Part shown: positions 1,114-19,782 of the stretch, piece by piece
Numbering within the stretch: position 1 is the first letter of the stretch
Layout of the letters: each line of letters starts with the position of its first letter
DNA from: Lachnospiraceae bacterium
GTDB lineage: Bacteria > Bacillota > Clostridia > Lachnospirales > Lachnospiraceae
Length of the DNA stretch: 64,000 nt
Direction of reading: 5' to 3'
Assembly: GCA_017936785.1 (NCBI GenBank)
Contig: JAGBEV010000057.1
Location: forward strand, 1 to 64,000
Translations under genes and position numbers: made by a program
The notes under the pieces: generated by a model
Seen by the model: the letters and a program-made list of their open reading frames with translations, nothing else
The model's database searches: none
What the model was told of the DNA's origin: nothing

Positions 1114-1345
1114 GGAGATTTGCATATTGCTTGGTTTTTCAAGCCGTATGTAAAGAAGTGCCAATTTTTCTTACAGAATGCCTCACAACCAGGGTAATCC
1201 TGCCATGGATGGCAGGATTAGGTTCCTTCGTGCATGGATGCACGTTGGAACCGACCCGTCCGCCTTCTAACACCTATTGCCGCATTCTGTTAGAAAAATG
1301 CACTTCGTACTCCGGCTTGAAAAACCAAGCAATATGCAAATCTCC
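1114..1345. repeat. 232-bp cruciform-like inverted-repeat element (MITE-like or structured RNA)
   Basis: Bases 1114-1146 and 1313-1345 are perfect 33-bp reverse complements (left arm begins GGAGATTTGCATATTGC). The pairing continues inward imperfectly for about 35 bases (AAGAAGTG...TTACAGAATGC at 1153-1181 against GCATTCTG...CACTTCGTA). The centre holds two further hairpins. The first is a perfect 12-bp stem at 1195-1220 with a GG loop. The second, at 1221-1252, has GGTTCC/GGAACC outside and CGTGCAT/ATGCACG inside, again with a GG loop. No transposase gene and no clear target-site duplication is visible. It lies between the atp terminator and the CBS gene, 60 bases before that start. The 950-1113 stretch before it is AT-rich and shows no gene. 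Confidence 0.85.
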
Positions 1346-5994: not shown

Positions 5995-8526
5995 ATGAAA
6001 AAGGGATTGATAAAAGGAATTGTCTGTTTTGTGACATTTTTTGTATCTATTTTTGTGATCAGTGCGATCATGAACAGAGGAAATACGGATATGACCATGG
6101 AAATGAGCGCCGCATCCTATCCGTTAGTCTATATCAATTATGAAGGAGAGCACATTAATTGTCTTCATGGCTACAGCAATGAAATGGATGTGCCTTTTAT
6201 GCGTGACACGGTTACACCTTTGGGAGAAGACCGGCAGATTTCATTATATATTGATAAATTTAACAGCGATGTCACTTCCATTACTTTCGAAGTGCGGTCT
6301 GCAGATGGGGAAAGACTGATTGAAAATTCTGAGATATTTAATTATAAAGAAAAGGATGCAGGAATTTCCGCTGATGTGACCATCAAGGATCTGATCGAAA
6401 AGGACACAGAGTATGAGTTTATCGTGATCATAGGGACTTCTGCAGGAAAGACCATCCGGTACTATACCAGAATCATTCAAAGGAGTGAAAATCATGCCGG
6501 TGAGGAAATCCGTTTTGCAAAGGATTTTCATAATAAAACCTTTGATAAGACAGCGGCAAAGGAACTGGCAAAGTATCTGGAGACGGATGAAACAGGAGAT
6601 AATACTTCTTTCAGCAATGTGAATATTCACAGCAGTTTTTCGCAGCTGACATGGGGAAATCTGAATGTGGAAAGGATTTCCGAACCACAGATTTATGTTA
6701 CGGAATTCTTTTCTCAGACCATGCGGGTAAAACTGACTTATTTTGTGAAGGTGACTACGGAAGAGGGCGAAAGAAAGTGCCGGGTGGAGGAATTTTACAG
6801 GCTTCGTTACGGAACCCAGAGAATTTATCTGCTGGATTACGAGAGAACCATGAATGAAGTTTTTGAAATGGATATTGAAGCCTTTAACAAAAATAAGCTG
6901 GATATGGGTATCAGAGATGCGGATGTGGAATTTATGGAAAGTGAGGATGGAGGAATCTTTGCTTTTGTATCGGAAAACAGGTTATTCTGTTACAATTCCT
7001 CAAGCAACAGGTTTGCCCAGTTGTTTGGTTTTTATGGGAAGGATCAGGAAGACGAAAGGACTTATTACGATCAGAATGCCATCCGGATATTAAATGTGGA
7101 TGAGACGGGAAATGTCCAGTTTATGGTCTATGGTTATATGAACAGGGGAACTCATGAGGGGAATATGGGAATTGCGGTCTATTTTTATAACAGCGCCCTG
7201 AACACCATTGAAGAGGAAGTTTTTATTCCATATTCCAAGTCCTATGCAGTTCTTGCCAGCGACCTGGAACAATTGATCTATCTAAACAGCAGCAACGAAT
7301 TGTTTTTGTATTTAAACGGCAGTATCTTTCGTATCAGACTGGAGGAAAATACCTATGAAACCGTGGTAGAGAACCTGTCCCAGGACAGCTTAAAGGTATC
7401 CCGGTCCAATCGGATGGTAGTATGGTCCGAAGGGGGAGATGCAGAGGGCAGCACAAGCCTTTCGTTGATGAATTTAAGCAGCGGAAGCATTTCCAAGGTA
7501 GAAGCAGGCAATGGCAATTATATCAGACCCTTGGGATTTATGGATGAAGATCTGATTTATGGATTGGTACGGTCTTCGGATACCTATACGGATAATGCGG
7601 GAAGTATCCTGATGCCCATGTTTTGTGTAAGGATTTGCAGCGGATCAGATAATTCCATAACCATGAATTATGAAAAGTCCGGCATCTATGTATTGGATAT
7701 CACCATAGCCCATAACCAGATCAATCTGGAACGGGTAAGTAAAAATACAGCAGATGGGACATACAGCCCTGCATCGGCAGATCAGATCATGAGTACGGAA
7801 ACGGAACTGCAGGGAGAAAACCAGATTGAGGTTGTAGCTACGGAAGTGTTGGAAAAGATCGTGCAGATTGCGGCAAAGGGAACCATTGCCACTAAGTCAT
7901 TGAAATTCCTGACGCCTAAAGAGGTCATGTATGAAGGCGGTCATGAGGTAATTTTAAATTATCCGGAGCAGTCGGAAAATAAATATTATGTTTGTGGAGC
8001 AGATGGAATTGACGGCGTATATTCCAATGCCGCAGAGGCGGTAAGCACTGCAGAAAGTACAGCAGGTACAGTTATCAATGAATCAGGAGATTATGTCTGG
8101 GTAAAAGGAAACCGGGCAATCCGCAATCAGATCATGAAGATTGAAGGAACGGCTGCCGATGAAGAAAATTCATCTTTGGCAGTATGCCTGAATACCATGC
8201 TGGCAGCAGAAGGCATTACCAGAAACAGTCAGTATTTGCTGGATCAGGGGAAATCAGCGCTGTCCATTTTGGATGAACAGATGGAGGAAGCGCAGATACT
8301 GGATCTGAGCGGATGCAGCCTGGATGCGGTTCTTTATTATGTGGACAGGGATATCCCGGTTATGGCGATTTTACAGGATAGAAGTGCTGTTTTAATCGTG
8401 GGATTTAATGAATTGAATACGGTGATCATGGACCCGGCAACAGGAACTGTTTATAAAAAGGGAATGAATGATTCTACGGAATGGTTCAACCAGAATGGGA
8501 ATCAGTTTATTACGTATATTAATTAA
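5995..8526 (+). CDS. Membrane-anchored extracytoplasmic protein with C39-peptidase-like C-terminus
   Basis: This is an 843-residue protein. Residues 3-25 form one hydrophobic N-terminal segment (GIVCFVTFFVSIFVISAIM), so the bulk should lie outside the membrane. Residues 30-330 look like beta-rich domains and 330-600 like a WD/propeller-type series of short beta repeats. The final 115 residues resemble the Peptidase_C39-like fold: a Cys at C731 (SSLAVCLNTML), a helix with AVLYYVDRDIPVMAIL, then RSAVLIVGFN and MDPATG (D813). The residue where the catalytic His is expected appears to be S800, so it may be a non-catalytic binding module. Function is unknown. The RBS is AGAGGAAATT. It ends ten bases before a 169-bp palindrome. 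Confidence 0.75.
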   Translation: MKKGLIKGIVCFVTFFVSIFVISAIMNRGNTDMTMEMSAASYPLVYINYEGEHINCLHGYSNEMDVPFMRDTVTPLGEDRQISLYIDKFNSDVTSITFEVRSADGERLIENSEIFNYKEKDAGISADVTIKDLIEKDTEYEFIVIIGTSAGKTIRYYTRIIQRSENHAGEEIRFAKDFHNKTFDKTAAKELAKYLETDETGDNTSFSNVNIHSSFSQLTWGNLNVERISEPQIYVTEFFSQTMRVKLTYFVKVTTEEGERKCRVEEFYRLRYGTQRIYLLDYERTMNEVFEMDIEAFNKNKLDMGIRDADVEFMESEDGGIFAFVSENRLFCYNSSSNRFAQLFGFYGKDQEDERTYYDQNAIRILNVDETGNVQFMVYGYMNRGTHEGNMGIAVYFYNSALNTIEEEVFIPYSKSYAVLASDLEQLIYLNSSNELFLYLNGSIFRIRLEENTYETVVENLSQDSLKVSRSNRMVVWSEGGDAEGSTSLSLMNLSSGSISKVEAGNGNYIRPLGFMDEDLIYGLVRSSDTYTDNAGSILMPMFCVRICSGSDNSITMNYEKSGIYVLDITIAHNQINLERVSKNTADGTYSPASADQIMSTETELQGENQIEVVATEVLEKIVQIAAKGTIATKSLKFLTPKEVMYEGGHEVILNYPEQSENKYYVCGADGIDGVYSNAAEAVSTAESTAGTVINESGDYVWVKGNRAIRNQIMKIEGTAADEENSSLAVCLNTMLAAEGITRNSQYLLDQGKSALSILDEQMEEAQILDLSGCSLDAVLYYVDRDIPVMAILQDRSAVLIVGFNELNTVIMDPATGTVYKKGMNDSTEWFNQNGNQFITYIN

Positions 8527-8535
8527 AAACGGACG

Positions 8536-8704
8536 GCTGCGGGGATTATCAGATTTTATTTTATATAGTATCACGGGAACGCGCTTTCGCTCGGATAAAA
8601 ACGCAGCGGATGCGTAAGATTGCAAAGGACGCAATCTAAGCACCGGCGTTTTTATACGGTTCCCTTTGATACTATATAAAATAAAATCTGATAATCCCCG
8701 CAGC
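8536..8704. repeat. 169-bp long palindromic element between convergent genes
   Basis: Bases 8536-8573 and 8667-8704 are perfect 38-bp reverse complements (left arm starts GCTGCGGGGATTATCAG). Inside, GGGAAC (8575-8580) pairs with GTTCCC (8659-8664), ATAAAAACGC (8595-8604) with GCGTTTTTAT (8646-8655), and AGATTGC (8617-8623) with GCAATCT (8631-8637). AAAAAC and GTTTTTT extend the outer ends. It fills the gap between the 843-residue protein gene and the convergent queT and may terminate both transcripts, but it is far larger than a normal terminator. Confidence 0.85.
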
Positions 8705-8771
8705 CTGTTTTTTGATTAAATAGACCTTATTAAATTGAAGGGGTGAGTTTGTGTTGTACCCCGGGGTTATT

Positions 8772-9260
8772 TTATTGGCGGAAGAGGTGGGTGCGGTATT
8801 TTTGGAGGAGGAATAGCAGGAGCATTCCAAGGATGCCGCAGGATATTAGTTCACCGATGCCGATGGTCAGCATGAAAAAGGGGATGCCGCCGGGGAGACC
8901 GTAGGCGTATTGCAGGACAAAGGGGATGATCAGGACGTTTGCCAGAATCGGTGGGATTGGAGCACACCATTTCCATTTTCGCAGGGCATAGGTTCCAAGG
9001 GCACCTAATAAGGTTGCAAGGCTGCCAAAGATCACATCCCAGATAGGGGCACCTGTAATGAAATTACTTAACAGGCATCCGATAAATAAGCCGGGAACGG
9101 CAGCAGGTGTAAAAAAGGGTAAGATGGTAAGTGCCTCGGAAATACGGACCTGAATGGCGCCGCTTGCCAGATCAAAAGCATTGATGGCAACAGTGAGCAC
9201 CACATAGATAGCAGCGATAACCGCTGCCTGGGTGATAAAGTAAGCTTTTTTGTTTTTCAT
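8772..9260 (-). CDS. queT: QueT-family queuosine-precursor ECF transporter substrate-binding subunit
   Basis: This 162-residue integral membrane protein has about five or six hydrophobic segments, e.g. FITQAAVIAAIYVVLTVA, FFTPAAVPGLFIGCLLSNFI and IGIGELISCGILGMLLLFLL. VRISEALTILPFF and TGAPIWDVIFGSLATLLGA are typical of QueT (COG4708). QueT is the S-component that brings preQ1 or preQ0 to a shared ECF module, which is not encoded here. The frame is open to an ATG at 9365. The start at 9260 is chosen because AAGGAG lies eight bases before it and the upstream part is structured leader RNA. Riboswitch control is probable from the leader. Confidence 0.9.
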   Translation of the reverse strand: MKNKKAYFITQAAVIAAIYVVLTVAINAFDLASGAIQVRISEALTILPFFTPAAVPGLFIGCLLSNFITGAPIWDVIFGSLATLLGALGTYALRKWKWCAPIPPILANVLIIPFVLQYAYGLPGGIPFFMLTIGIGELISCGILGMLLLFLLQKYRTHLFRQ

Positions 9261-16740: not shown

Positions 16741-17855
16741 GAGCAATAGGAATTATTTTAGCCGGCGGTAACAACCACAGAATGGGAGATTTATCCAAAA
16801 AAAGAGCTATTTCGGCTATGCCCATTGCAGGAAGTTACCGGGGTATCGATTTTGCATTGAGTAATATGACCAATTCCCATATTCAGAAAGTAGGCGTATT
16901 TACCCAATATAATGCCAGAAGTTTAAATGAACATCTGAGTTCTTCCAAATGGTGGGATTTTGGTAGAAAACAGGGAGGTCTGTTCGTGTTCACGCCAACA
17001 GTTACCAGTGATAATAACTCCTGGTACAGGGGAACTGCAGATGCGATCTATCAAAACCTTTCTTTTTTGAAAGCCAGCCATGAACCTTATGTTGTTATTG
17101 CATCCGGTGATTGTGTTTATAAGATGGACTACAACAAAGTGCTGGAATATCATATTGCAAAGAAAGCAGATATTACAGTGGTATGTAAAGAGATGGATGC
17201 CGGAGAAAATGTAGATCGTTATGGTACTGTTAAGATGAATGAAGATTTCCGTATTGAAGAATTTGAGGAAAAGCCCATTGTAGCAAAATCCAATACGATT
17301 TCCTGTGGTATTTATGTCATTCGTAGAAGACAGTTGATCGAACTGATTGAAAAATGTGCGGAAGAAAATCTTTATGATTTTGTTAAGGATATTTTGATCC
17401 GTTATAAGAGCCTGAAAAGAATTTACGGCTATAAGATGACGGACTACTGGAAGAATATTGCGACGATTGAAGATTACTTCAATACAAATATGGATTTCCT
17501 GAAACCGGAGATCCGCAGGCACTTCTTTAGGGAATATCCGGATATCTACTCCAAAGTAGATGATCTTCCGCCTGCAAAATACAATGTAGGGGCAAAATTG
17601 AAAAACTGCCTGATCTCCAGCGGAAGTATCATTAACGGAACAGTGGAAAATTCAGTTATCTTTAAGAAGGTATTTGTAGGCAATAATTGTACCATTAAAA
17701 ATTCCGTTATTTTGAATGATGTATACATTGGAGACAATACCTACATTGAAAATTGTATTGTGGAAAGCCATGATACGATTCGTGCCAATTCGTATCTGAA
17801 AGGGGAAGATGGCATAAAGGTTGTAGTAGAACAAAATGACAGATTTGTAATCTAA
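16737..17855 (+). CDS. glgD: Glucose-1-phosphate adenylyltransferase-like subunit GlgD
   Basis: This 372-residue GlgC paralogue is typical of Firmicute glgCD operons. It keeps the overall fold (N-terminal [21 protein letters not shown]-terminal hexapeptide helix). The nucleotide loop is altered: the Gly-Gln-Gly-Ser-Arg of GlgC is replaced by GGNNHRMG. This fits the family role as a non-catalytic or regulatory partner that boosts GlgC activity. The start ATG overlaps the glgC TGA (ATGA). It is followed after 27 bases by spoVG. Confidence 0.93.
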
Positions 17856-17882
17856 TCTGCAGAAAACTAAGGGGGACACCAG

Positions 17883-18158
17883 ATGAATATTACTGACGTA
17901 CATGTGCGGAAGATCAGCCATGAGGGAAAGATGAAAGCAGTTGTATCCATTACTCTGGATGACGTATTTGTAGTACATGACATCAAGGTGATTGACGGTG
18001 AAAAAGGATTATTCATTGCAATGCCAAGTAAAAAAACAGCTGATGGAGAATATCGGGATATCGCACATCCCATCAATTCAGCAACAAGACAGATTATCCA
18101 GACAACTATTCTCAGAGCTTATGAGGACGCATTGTCCACAGAAGAGCCTGAAGTATAA
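17883..18158 (+). CDS. spoVG: Septation regulator SpoVG
   Basis: This is a 91-residue SpoVG protein. The conserved core is present: [30 protein letters not shown], then the signature [11 protein letters not shown] and YRDIAHPI. SpoVG is a small DNA/RNA-binding protein affecting asymmetric septation, capsule and virulence genes in Firmicutes. The RBS GGGGGAC lies nine bases before the ATG. Its location directly after glgCD, ending at a strong terminator, suggests co-expression with glycogen synthesis. That pairing is an inference from context. Confidence 0.96.
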
Positions 18159-18192
18159 GGGACTGATATTTCGAGAAGGTTAAACGAGGGTA

Positions 18193-18229
18193 AAAAAGAG
18201 GCTGGTGCCATTGGCATCAGCTTCTTTTT
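18193..18229. terminator. Terminator after spoVG
   Basis: AAAAAGAGGCTGGTGCCA pairs with the following TTGGCATCAGCTTCTTTTT (two mismatches), with A and T runs on both sides. Confidence 0.9.
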
Positions 18230-18350
18230 ACGGGAAATGTCGGTATTTGTCGATTGATGCTGGTGGACATAAATCATTTTTTATACTAATATTATTGTAT
18301 AAGAAACACGAAAAATGTCAAAGTATGAAGACGTTTTTCAATTTCAGATG

Positions 18351-18556
18351 CCACATTACTTGCATGTCATGTAACGGCAATGCCATATCTTCCATAGGCA
18401 CTTTCGGACAATGATTCCGGAGTGTCCGCGTATCGGAATACGGCAGCTTATGTACCCCTTCGGATATTTGTCTGAAATAAGCCGCCGATTGCAGAAATAG
18501 AATTCTGCCTTGCCCGAAGTACCTTGGGTATTTGACGTTACAGGGATGCAATGTGG
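18351..18556 (+). ncRNA. Highly structured small RNA (unidentified class)
   Basis: A multipart closing stem pairs CCACATT (18351-18357) with AATGTGG (18550-18556), GCAT (18362-18365) with ATGC (18546-18549), and GTAACG (18371-18376) with CGTTAC (18536-18541). Inside are hairpins CGGACA/TGTCCG (18405-18428), CGTAT-CGGA-ATACG (18429-18442), CGGC.GCTTAT/ATAAGC.GCCG (about 18441-18487) and GCAGAA/TTCTGC (18491-18508). The unit lies between the spoVG terminator and its own terminator at 18581-18627. A minus-strand open frame across it looks like a shadow. Possible classes are raiA-type RNA or another large clostridial RNA; it lacks tmRNA and RNase P signatures. Strand is inferred from the following T-rich terminator. 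Confidence 0.6.
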
Positions 18557-18580
18557 AAAATAGATAACTGTAACACATTA

Positions 18581-18627
18581 AAATCAAGGATGGATTCCTG
18601 TATGGCAGGAACCCATCTTTGATTTTT
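18581..18627 (+). terminator. Terminator of the structured RNA unit
   Basis: ATCAAGGATGGATTCCTG pairs with CAGGAACCCATCTTTGAT, with few mismatches and a five-base loop, followed by TTTTT. Confidence 0.9.
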
Positions 18628-18648
18628 TACAGACCGGTCACATATTTA

Positions 18649-18678
18649 TTTACATTAGGTCAGGAAATTCCATAAAAT
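18649..18678 (+). promoter_or_regulatory. Promoter for ddh
   Basis: TTTACA and TAAAAT are 18 bases apart, downstream of the previous terminator and 124 bases before ddh. Confidence 0.6.
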
Positions 18679-18714
18679 CAAAAAATGAAGTTTATAAATG
18701 GGGAGGTTTTTGGT

Positions 18715-18762
18715 ATGATATTAAGGCAGGAAAGTGTAATGAGTAATATACTTTCACATTAG
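18715..18762 (+). CDS. Possible 15-codon leader peptide before ddh
   Basis: The frame reads MILRQESVMSNILSH and then stops. GGGGAGG sits nine bases before the ATG, a stronger Shine-Dalgarno than many genes here. Its 3' half overlaps a hairpin, GAAAGTGTA/TATACTTTC (18730-18755). There is no homology evidence at this length. It could be a leader peptide or chance. Confidence 0.3.
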   Translation: MILRQESVMSNILSH

Positions 18763-18801
18763 TTTTTGAATGATATACTATATGGAAGGGAAGGAAAAGA
18801 A

Positions 18802-19782
18802 ATGAAAATCGGAATTATCGGTTACGGAAATTTAGGAAGAGGAATTGAATGTGCCATTAAGCAGAATGCGGATATGGAGCTGGCAGCAGTATTTACCAGA
18901 AGAAATCCTTCGGACGTAAAGATATTGACAGAAGGAGTTCCGGTGTATCCTGTAGATGAGATCGAAAAGATGGAGGGTAAACTGGATGTAGTGGTTCTTT
19001 GCGGCGGAAGCGCAACTGACCTGCCAAGACAGACACCGGTATATGCAAAATATTTTAATGTTATTGACAGCTTTGATACCCATGCAAGAATACCGGAGCA
19101 TTTTGAACAGGTGGATGCTGCAGCAAAGGAAGGCGGTCATGTGGCATTGATCTCCTGCGGCTGGGACCCGGGTATGTTTTCTTTGAACAGATTATATGCA
19201 AATGCTATTTTGCCGGAAGGCAATGATTATACTTTCTGGGGAAAAGGTGTCAGCCAGGGACATTCAGACGCCATCCGCCGTGTAGAGGGAGTAAAGGACG
19301 GCAAACAATATACAATCCCTGTAGAGGAGGCTTTAAAGGAAGTCAGAAGCGGAAGCAATCCCCAGCTTTCTACAAGACAGAAACATATCAGAGAATGTTT
19401 TGTAGTTCCCGAGGAAGGAGCAGATCTGGCAAAGATCGAAGAGACCATCAAGAATATGCCCAATTACTTTGCGGATTATGATACCACTGTACATTTTATC
19501 AGTGAAGATGAATTAAAGAGAGATCACAGCGGAATACCCCATGGAGGATTTGTATTCAGAACAGGAGTTACAGGCTGGGACAAGGAAAACAAGCATGTTA
19601 TTGAATACAGCTTAAAGCTGGACTCCAATCCGGAATTTACTGCTTCCGTGCTTCTTGCTTTTGCAAGAGCTGTCAACCGCCTCCATCAGGAAGGACAGAC
19701 AGGCTGCAAGACCGTATTTGATATTGCGCCTGCATATCTCAGCCCTAAATCGGGAGAAGAATTGAGAAAGCATTTATTATAA
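18802..19782 (+). CDS. ddh: meso-Diaminopimelate D-dehydrogenase
   Basis: This 326-residue NADP-dependent enzyme has the same length as characterised Ddh. The N-terminal Rossmann motif is KIGIIGYGNLGRGIE. Substrate-domain signatures include SCGWDPGMFSLNRLYANAILP and GVSQGHSDAIRRVEGVKDG. It makes meso-diaminopimelate from tetrahydrodipicolinate in one step, for peptidoglycan and lysine. The frame extends upstream to a TTG, but the purine-rich GGAAGGGAAGGAAAAG just before the ATG at 18802 and the conserved N-terminus decide the start. It is followed 57 bases later by pth. Confidence 0.96.
   Translation: MKIGIIGYGNLGRGIECAIKQNADMELAAVFTRRNPSDVKILTEGVPVYPVDEIEKMEGKLDVVVLCGGSATDLPRQTPVYAKYFNVIDSFDTHARIPEHFEQVDAAAKEGGHVALISCGWDPGMFSLNRLYANAILPEGNDYTFWGKGVSQGHSDAIRRVEGVKDGKQYTIPVEEALKEVRSGSNPQLSTRQKHIRECFVVPEEGADLAKIEETIKNMPNYFADYDTTVHFISEDELKRDHSGIPHGGFVFRTGVTGWDKENKHVIEYSLKLDSNPEFTASVLLAFARAVNRLHQEGQTGCKTVFDIAPAYLSPKSGEELRKHLL

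What the first reader, a model, noticed from the sequence alone, without database searches (positions are those of the whole stretch)
18351..18556. Independent, highly structured 206-nt RNA between spoVG and ddh
The region has a three-part closing stem joining both ends (CCACATT/AATGTGG, GCAT/ATGC, GTAACG/CGTTAC) and at least four internal perfect hairpins, including CGTAT-CGGA-ATACG. It lies between the spoVG terminator (18193-18229) and its own strong terminator (18581-18627), before the ddh promoter, so it is not a ddh leader. It lacks tmRNA and RNase P signatures. raiA-type RNA, a 6S-like RNA or a new class are the options.
Basis: partly seen in the sequence, partly recalled or inferred. 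Interest (0 to 1): 0.75.

Follow-up and report, generated by a model that had tools for sequence, protein, structure and literature searches.

The report
Orphan folded intergenic insertion, possibly sRNA
Between two ordinary bacterial genes lies a strongly folding stretch, perhaps a small RNA gene of this one lineage, but no relative of it turned up, so it cannot yet be called a new RNA class.

Summary
The 206-nt segment folds better than 500 of 500 dinucleotide shuffles (z -4.56) and better than 71 of 71 coding control windows. Cautions: the long closing stem alone is marginal (8 of 200 shuffles reach it); the minus strand folds about as well; the named hairpin CGTAT-CGGA-ATACG competes with a better-supported stem. 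The segment is the core of a ~440-bp stretch present here and absent in the three sisters with adjacent spoVG and ddh, which go from the spoVG terminator to the conserved ddh promoter. No homologue was found by Rfam, blastn, a single-sequence covariance model or exact-pattern scans. raiA and 6S are not supported; the genome's 6S lies elsewhere. Best reading (0.42): a lineage-specific small-RNA-like unit of roughly 330 nt with a weak promoter-like site and a strong terminator. Main rival (0.33): an inert DNA-level insertion. Without a second member no covariation test was possible, and transcription is unproven.

The parts
18230..18674 (.). segment present in this genome and absent between spoVG and ddh in G002, G006 and G004 (ends approximate; flanks are AT-rich and diverged)
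   Evidence: MAFFT alignment of the four intergenic regions, and blastn coverage gaps 18199-18785 (vs G002) and 18202-18785 (vs G006); sequences
18264..18292 (+). weak promoter-like site TGGACA-17-TAATAT (9 of 12); start near 18299 inferred
   Evidence: consensus scan only, (7 sites found in 17800-18850, 3.4 expected)
18294..18321 (-). strong promoter-like site TTGACA-16-TACAAT (11 of 12) pointing away from the 206-nt segment, towards the spoVG terminator
   Evidence: a hypothetical ~100-nt minus-strand RNA ending at the reversed spoVG terminator was folded
18310..18339 (+). 10-bp hairpin GAAAAATGTC / GACGTTTTTC upstream of the 206-nt domain
   Evidence: MFE fold of 18300-18630, and of 18300-18632
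18351..18556 (+). multibranched folded domain closed by a three-part stem (18351-18357/18550-18556, 18360-18365/18546-18551, 18370-18376/18536-18542; the first two share 18550-18551) with inner hairpins
18441..18487 (+). best-supported inner arm: CGGC/GCCG, GCTTAT/ATAAGC, TTCGGAT/GTCTGAA (mean pair probabilities 0.97-0.99)
18491..18508 (+). hairpin GCAGAA/TTCTGC (0.96)
18580..18627 (+). strong intrinsic-terminator-like hairpin with T-run
   Evidence: fold -27.0 kcal/mol; inverted repeat I1; the scan flagged only the minus-strand reading of this hairpin
18190..18231 (+). spoVG terminator hairpin
   Evidence: fold -26.0 kcal/mol; inverted repeat I2; not flagged by the scan; the sisters show a hairpin-like T-rich stretch there by eye
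18688..18719 (+). ddh promoter region (AAGTTTATAAAT...TTTTTGGTATGAT) conserved in G002, G006 and G004
   Evidence: alignment; consensus scan (TTTATA-17-TATGAT, 9 of 12)

Best explanation
A lineage-specific, single-copy small-RNA-like transcription unit gained between spoVG and ddh. Transcription would start near 18299 and stop at the terminator ending near 18627, giving an RNA of about 330 nt: a short 5' hairpin, a compact 206-nt multibranched domain closed by its own ends, and the terminator. Shown: the sequence, the excess folding energy, the terminator-like hairpin, a conserved promoter region of its own for ddh, the absence of the segment in three sisters. Inferred: promoter use, strand, that the RNA accumulates. 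Proposed mechanism (inferred only): a stable RNA that acts by holding a protein or another RNA rather than by switching ddh. Neighbouring SpoVG, whose Listeria homologue binds RNA (PMC4959528, passages seen), is a candidate partner, with no evidence here.
For: z -4.56 with 0 of 500 shuffles and 0 of 71 CDS windows as low. Terminator hairpin -27.0 kcal/mol with T-run. Promoter-like site 9 of 12 upstream. ddh promoter region conserved downstream in four genomes, so the unit looks separate from ddh. No Pfam family for the 89-aa antisense and 69-aa sense frames; no NCBIfam family for the antisense frame.
Against: No homologue and hence no covariation. The minus strand folds about as well. Closing stem reached by 8 of 200 shuffles. 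The promoter match is weak, and the strongest promoter-like site points the other way. Folding energy is a poor marker of RNA genes here: two 6S RNAs over the Rfam cut-off give z -2.76 and -0.46 by the same test, so a strong z neither proves nor is needed for an RNA gene. No expression data. No unusual complementarity to the spoVG or ddh start regions: 28 of 60 and 32 of 60 mononucleotide shuffles do as well.
Confidence: 0.42

Rival explanations
1. A DNA-level insertion: a decayed or one-off foldback or mobile fragment whose inverted repeats fold on either strand and have no RNA function.
For: Nearly strand-symmetric folding; the segment is extra relative to three sisters; the same genome carries a genuine dispersed foldback repeat family (8530-8706, 18 blastn matches including self), so such insertions occur here; other blastn coverage gaps of 1.1-5.1 kb separate this genome from the fetched G002 stretches, so extra DNA is not rare.
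Against: Single copy in the genome (the only other match is 17 nt); no target-site duplication or terminal repeat recognised at its ends (by eye; the 13-nt inverted pair 18314-18326/18748-18760 encloses the conserved ddh promoter and was set aside); no sequence shared with the foldback family; it carries a terminator with T-run.
Confidence: 0.33
2. A 5' leader or attenuator (riboswitch-like) acting on ddh: closed aptamer-like domain followed by a terminator upstream of the gene.
For: Order domain - terminator - ddh on one strand. CTGTAAC (18568-18574) and CACATT (18574-18579) repeat 5' strands of the closing stems and could compete for their 3' partners; the alternative hairpin alone is -8.7 kcal/mol.
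Against: A promoter region for ddh is conserved after the terminator. Forcing the alternative pairing costs 9.9 kcal/mol (-115.6 to -105.7), or 6.7 without the terminator, and leaves the terminator intact. No antiterminator beyond chance: 13 of 100 shuffles as good. No riboswitch family matches.
Confidence: 0.08
3. The minus strand is the functional one: an antisense or divergent RNA.
For: z -5.5 on the minus strand of the 206 nt and an 11 of 12 promoter-like site on the minus strand.
Against: That site lies downstream of the 206-nt segment in minus-strand reading, so it cannot transcribe it; no other minus-strand promoter-like site was found in 17800-18850.
Confidence: 0.08
4. Divergent member of a known family (raiA/ModT or 6S).
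For: Length (206 nt; the raiA model has 209 positions and the 6S model 187) and a closing stem.
Against: Neither is among the matches at E <= 10; 6S is present elsewhere in the genome.
Confidence: 0.02

Closest known systems
raiA motif RNA / ModT (RF03072)
   Same: Free-standing structured RNA of about 200 nt in Gram-positive bacteria, with a terminator (PMC11706538, abstract and passages seen)
   Different: Not matched at E <= 10; raiA is conserved in more than 2,500 species (same abstract), this one was found in one genome
6S RNA (RF00013)
   Same: Similar size, ends joined by a stem
   Different: Multibranched interior instead of one long arm with a central bubble (6S architecture recalled); not matched; the genome's own 6S is on contig C65
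Lineage-specific intergenic sRNAs of bacteria (a kind, not a family; recalled)
   Same: Short unit with promoter-like site and terminator, no relatives in sister species
   Different: Transcription not shown here
Foldback or MITE-like intergenic repeats, e.g. the family at 8530-8706
   Same: Structured intergenic segment absent at a sister's site
   Different: Single copy, no shared sequence, no long near-perfect terminal arms

Membership tests
raiA / ModT RNA | matches RF03072 covariance model | tested here: not met
   not among matches at E <= 10 on 18150-18800 or 18340-18575. Whole genomes: 0 of 13 incl. own, but no control genome rang either, so alone shows nothing
raiA / ModT RNA | two pseudoknots and P1-P8 architecture (PMC11706538, passage) | not tested
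   pseudoknots were not modelled
6S RNA | matches RF00013 | tested here: not met
   the genome's 6S is G000:C65:22603-22788, 74.6 bits
6S RNA | binds RNA polymerase holoenzyme, templates pRNA (recalled) | not testable with these tools
   -
Free-standing small RNA gene | own promoter | tested here: inconclusive
   9 of 12 consensus site at 18264-18292; 7 sites found in 17800-18850 against 3.4 expected
Free-standing small RNA gene | own intrinsic terminator | tested here: met
   sequence criterion only: 18580-18626 hairpin, -27.0 kcal/mol, with T-run
Free-standing small RNA gene | transcript detected | not testable with these tools
   no expression data held
Structured RNA class | covariation in homologues | tested here: inconclusive
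   no homologue to test: model R1 matches 1 of 61, 3 of 397 and 1 of 392 genomes, own genome each time. The two others (19.7 and 18.6 bits) lie over the 3' end of a ROK-family gene and the gap after it and inside a 293-aa open frame
Riboswitch / attenuator | terminator versus antiterminator switching in the leader of the downstream gene | tested here: not met
   no antiterminator beyond chance, 13 of 100 shuffles; ddh promoter region conserved after the terminator. Computed only, not a bench test
MITE / foldback repeat | several copies in the genome | tested here: not met
   one copy

The most novel reading that the evidence does not exclude
The segment is the first seen member of a new free-standing structured RNA class, brought into this lineage as a complete promoter-RNA-terminator cassette, whose other members lie in genomes or mobile elements not held or not reached here.
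Probability: 0.12. Interest if true: 0.6.

Novelty: new member of a known kind. Interest (0 to 1): 0.25.

Why it matters
If transcribed, it is a clear case of a recently gained, strongly folded small-RNA gene with an empty site in three sisters, useful for asking how structured RNAs arise. As it stands it is an orphan and cannot support a new class; the lack of any relative in the sets searched is the main result.

Tried and rejected
Rfam at gathering threshold on the whole window and at E <= 10 on two stretches: nothing credible. The better rows (STnc390 at E 0.003, Esr41, mir-551 and others) sit mostly on the two terminators or the stretch between spoVG and the segment, all below gathering scores. 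One search gives four rows at E 3.7 or worse.

blastn for relatives: G075 39 nt at 82%, G005 37 nt at 84% over AT-rich promoter-like letters, 12 other family genomes with 20-52-nt pieces at E 0.003-0.01. All short and scattered over the query; G075 and G005 give no match to the covariance model at E <= 1. Judged chance. Phage and plasmid collections: none.

Single-sequence covariance model R1 (the segment given twice): two weak full-length matches of 19.7 and 18.6 bits, many pairs broken. L050 1501-1664 covers the last 95 nt of a ROK-family gene and the gap after it; L051 1501-1719 lies inside a 293-aa open frame. Rejected.

Exact patterns: 60 genome contigs stretches; R1 on 60 of 60 gives nothing above 12.8 bits. 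Viral contigs: 0, 81 reported of which 80 are listed, 11, 6, 3. R1 was run on 89 of the 100 listed viral loci (not the 11): no match. blastn over the loci then held: outside the locus itself only pieces of 18-53 nt among the 40 rows shown.

Protein reading: the 89-aa antisense and 69-aa sense frames match no Pfam family at E <= 10; the antisense frame matches no NCBIfam family and no phage record. In 397 genomes 8 incl. own match it at E <= 0.01; the other seven score 18.0-20.8 bits and four of the seven have stops inside. Judged chance. No dedicated small-peptide test was made for the shorter frames listed.

Alternative hairpin 18537-18574 as a switch: my first forced fold used a partner position one base off and its energy is not used; the corrected one costs 9.9 kcal/mol, less than I first wrote, and the odds of the leader rival were raised from 0.07 to 0.08. 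Base pairing with spoVG or ddh start regions: no better than shuffles.

Literature: listings (4 papers hold the terms, 4 listed; 28, 10 listed; 276, 10 listed); passages of PMC11706538 and PMC4959528. None of what I saw describes an RNA between spoVG and ddh; no wider claim of absence from print is made.

Full report
Observation. Folding of 18351-18556 is well beyond its own dinucleotide shuffles (z -4.75, 0 of 200 on 18350-18557; z -4.56, 0 of 500), and none of 71 control windows inside seven gene frames is as low (minimum -4.28). With the terminator, 18340-18640 gives z -6.39 (0 of 100). Several things weaken the picture. Across the window 12 of 620 tiles reach z <= -4.75 (20 shuffles each); among them are a known RNA (TwoAYGGAY), a foldback repeat (8530-8706), one tile over this locus with its terminator, and one tile inside a gene (17408-17613). 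The closing stem by itself is matched or beaten in 8 of 200 shuffles of 18230-18640. The minus strand folds about as well (-75.3 versus -74.1 kcal/mol on 18340-18560; z -5.5 on the 206 nt; z -5.57 versus -6.39 with the terminator), so folding hardly names the strand. Two 6S RNAs over the Rfam cut-off give z -2.76 and -0.46 by the same test, so z is a poor marker of RNA genes. Pairing probabilities support the three closing segments (0.82-0.96), the arm 18441-18487 (0.97-0.99) and the hairpin 18491-18508 (0.96), but not CGTAT-CGGA-ATACG; 18390-18438 is ambiguous.

Surroundings. The flanking genes are spoVG (NF009749, 145.7 bits) and diaminopimelate dehydrogenase ddh (TIGR01921, 446.7 bits), followed by pth and preceded by glgD (TIGR02092, over its cut-off). 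A terminator hairpin follows spoVG (18190-18231) and another lies at 18580-18626 with a T-run. A weak + strand promoter-like site lies at 18264-18292, and a stronger minus-strand one at 18321-18294 points away. A 10-bp hairpin at 18310-18339 precedes the domain.

Comparative anatomy. ddh was found in 34 of 61 genomes incl. own. Of the 30 loci held with up to 1.5 kb of flank (L004-L033), four including the own locus have spoVG beside ddh. In the three sisters (G002, G006, G004) the spoVG terminator is followed closely by a promoter region conserved in all four (AAGTTTATAAAT...TTTTTGGTATGAT); about 440 bp are extra in this genome, with uncertain ends. ddh nucleotide identities are own-G002 0.81, own-G006 0.81, G002-G006 0.87, own-G004 0.78, so G004 looks like the outgroup and one gain in this lineage is simpler than repeated loss; no formal tree was built. 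ddh therefore appears to have its own promoter, and the element is unlikely to be its ordinary leader.

Relatives. Own genome: one copy. blastn: no match judged real in 98 genomes incl. own, 9 genus genomes incl. own or 397 family genomes incl. own; none in phages or plasmids. The covariance model built from this one sequence finds only itself at credible scores in 61, 397 and 392 genomes; these sets overlap, and searches over 40 genomes use stricter filters. Exact-pattern scans of the viral and genome collections gave only chance hits by the tests made. A model from one sequence is weak, so distant relatives could be missed.

What it is. Not matched to raiA, 6S or any other Rfam family (6S elsewhere). 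Not coding by the tests made. A riboswitch-like role for ddh is disfavoured by the conserved downstream promoter and the lack of a convincing antiterminator, although 3' copies of closing-stem strands (18568-18579) leave it open. Two readings lead: a lineage-specific small RNA gene with its own terminator (0.42), and an inert structured DNA insertion (0.33). How an RNA would act is inference: a compact closed fold suggests a protein- or RNA-holding role; SpoVG next door is an RNA-binding protein in Listeria (PMC4959528, abstract and passages seen), which makes it a testable partner and no more than that.

Organism.

Noticed in passing
window 8530-8706: A foldback dispersed repeat (z -10.65 for 8500-8800) with 18 blastn matches in the own genome, two of them the element itself and its own reverse complement, so 17 places. 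In 9 of those 17 places aligned (the ones held as loci), 25 of 47 predicted pairs have changes on both sides; conserved core ACGCGCTYYCGCTCGGATAAAAACG, approximately; no Rfam match at gathering score. Its site falls in a coverage gap against G006 (8511-8793). It looks more promising than the finding itself.
   Followed up: partly
window 1148-1313 +: TwoAYGGAY RNA (RF01731, 92.6 bits), the only Rfam match over its gathering score in the window.
   Followed up: no
window 18187-18321 -: Strong promoter-like TTGACA-16-TACAAT on the minus strand that could give a ~100-nt RNA antisense to the spoVG terminator, ending at its reversed hairpin and T-run (folded).
   Followed up: partly
window 18370-18632: TGTAAC, GTTACA or parts of them recur alternately at 18370-18375, 18537-18543, 18568-18574 and 18627-18632, so several mutually exclusive pairings exist around the terminator.
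   Followed up: partly
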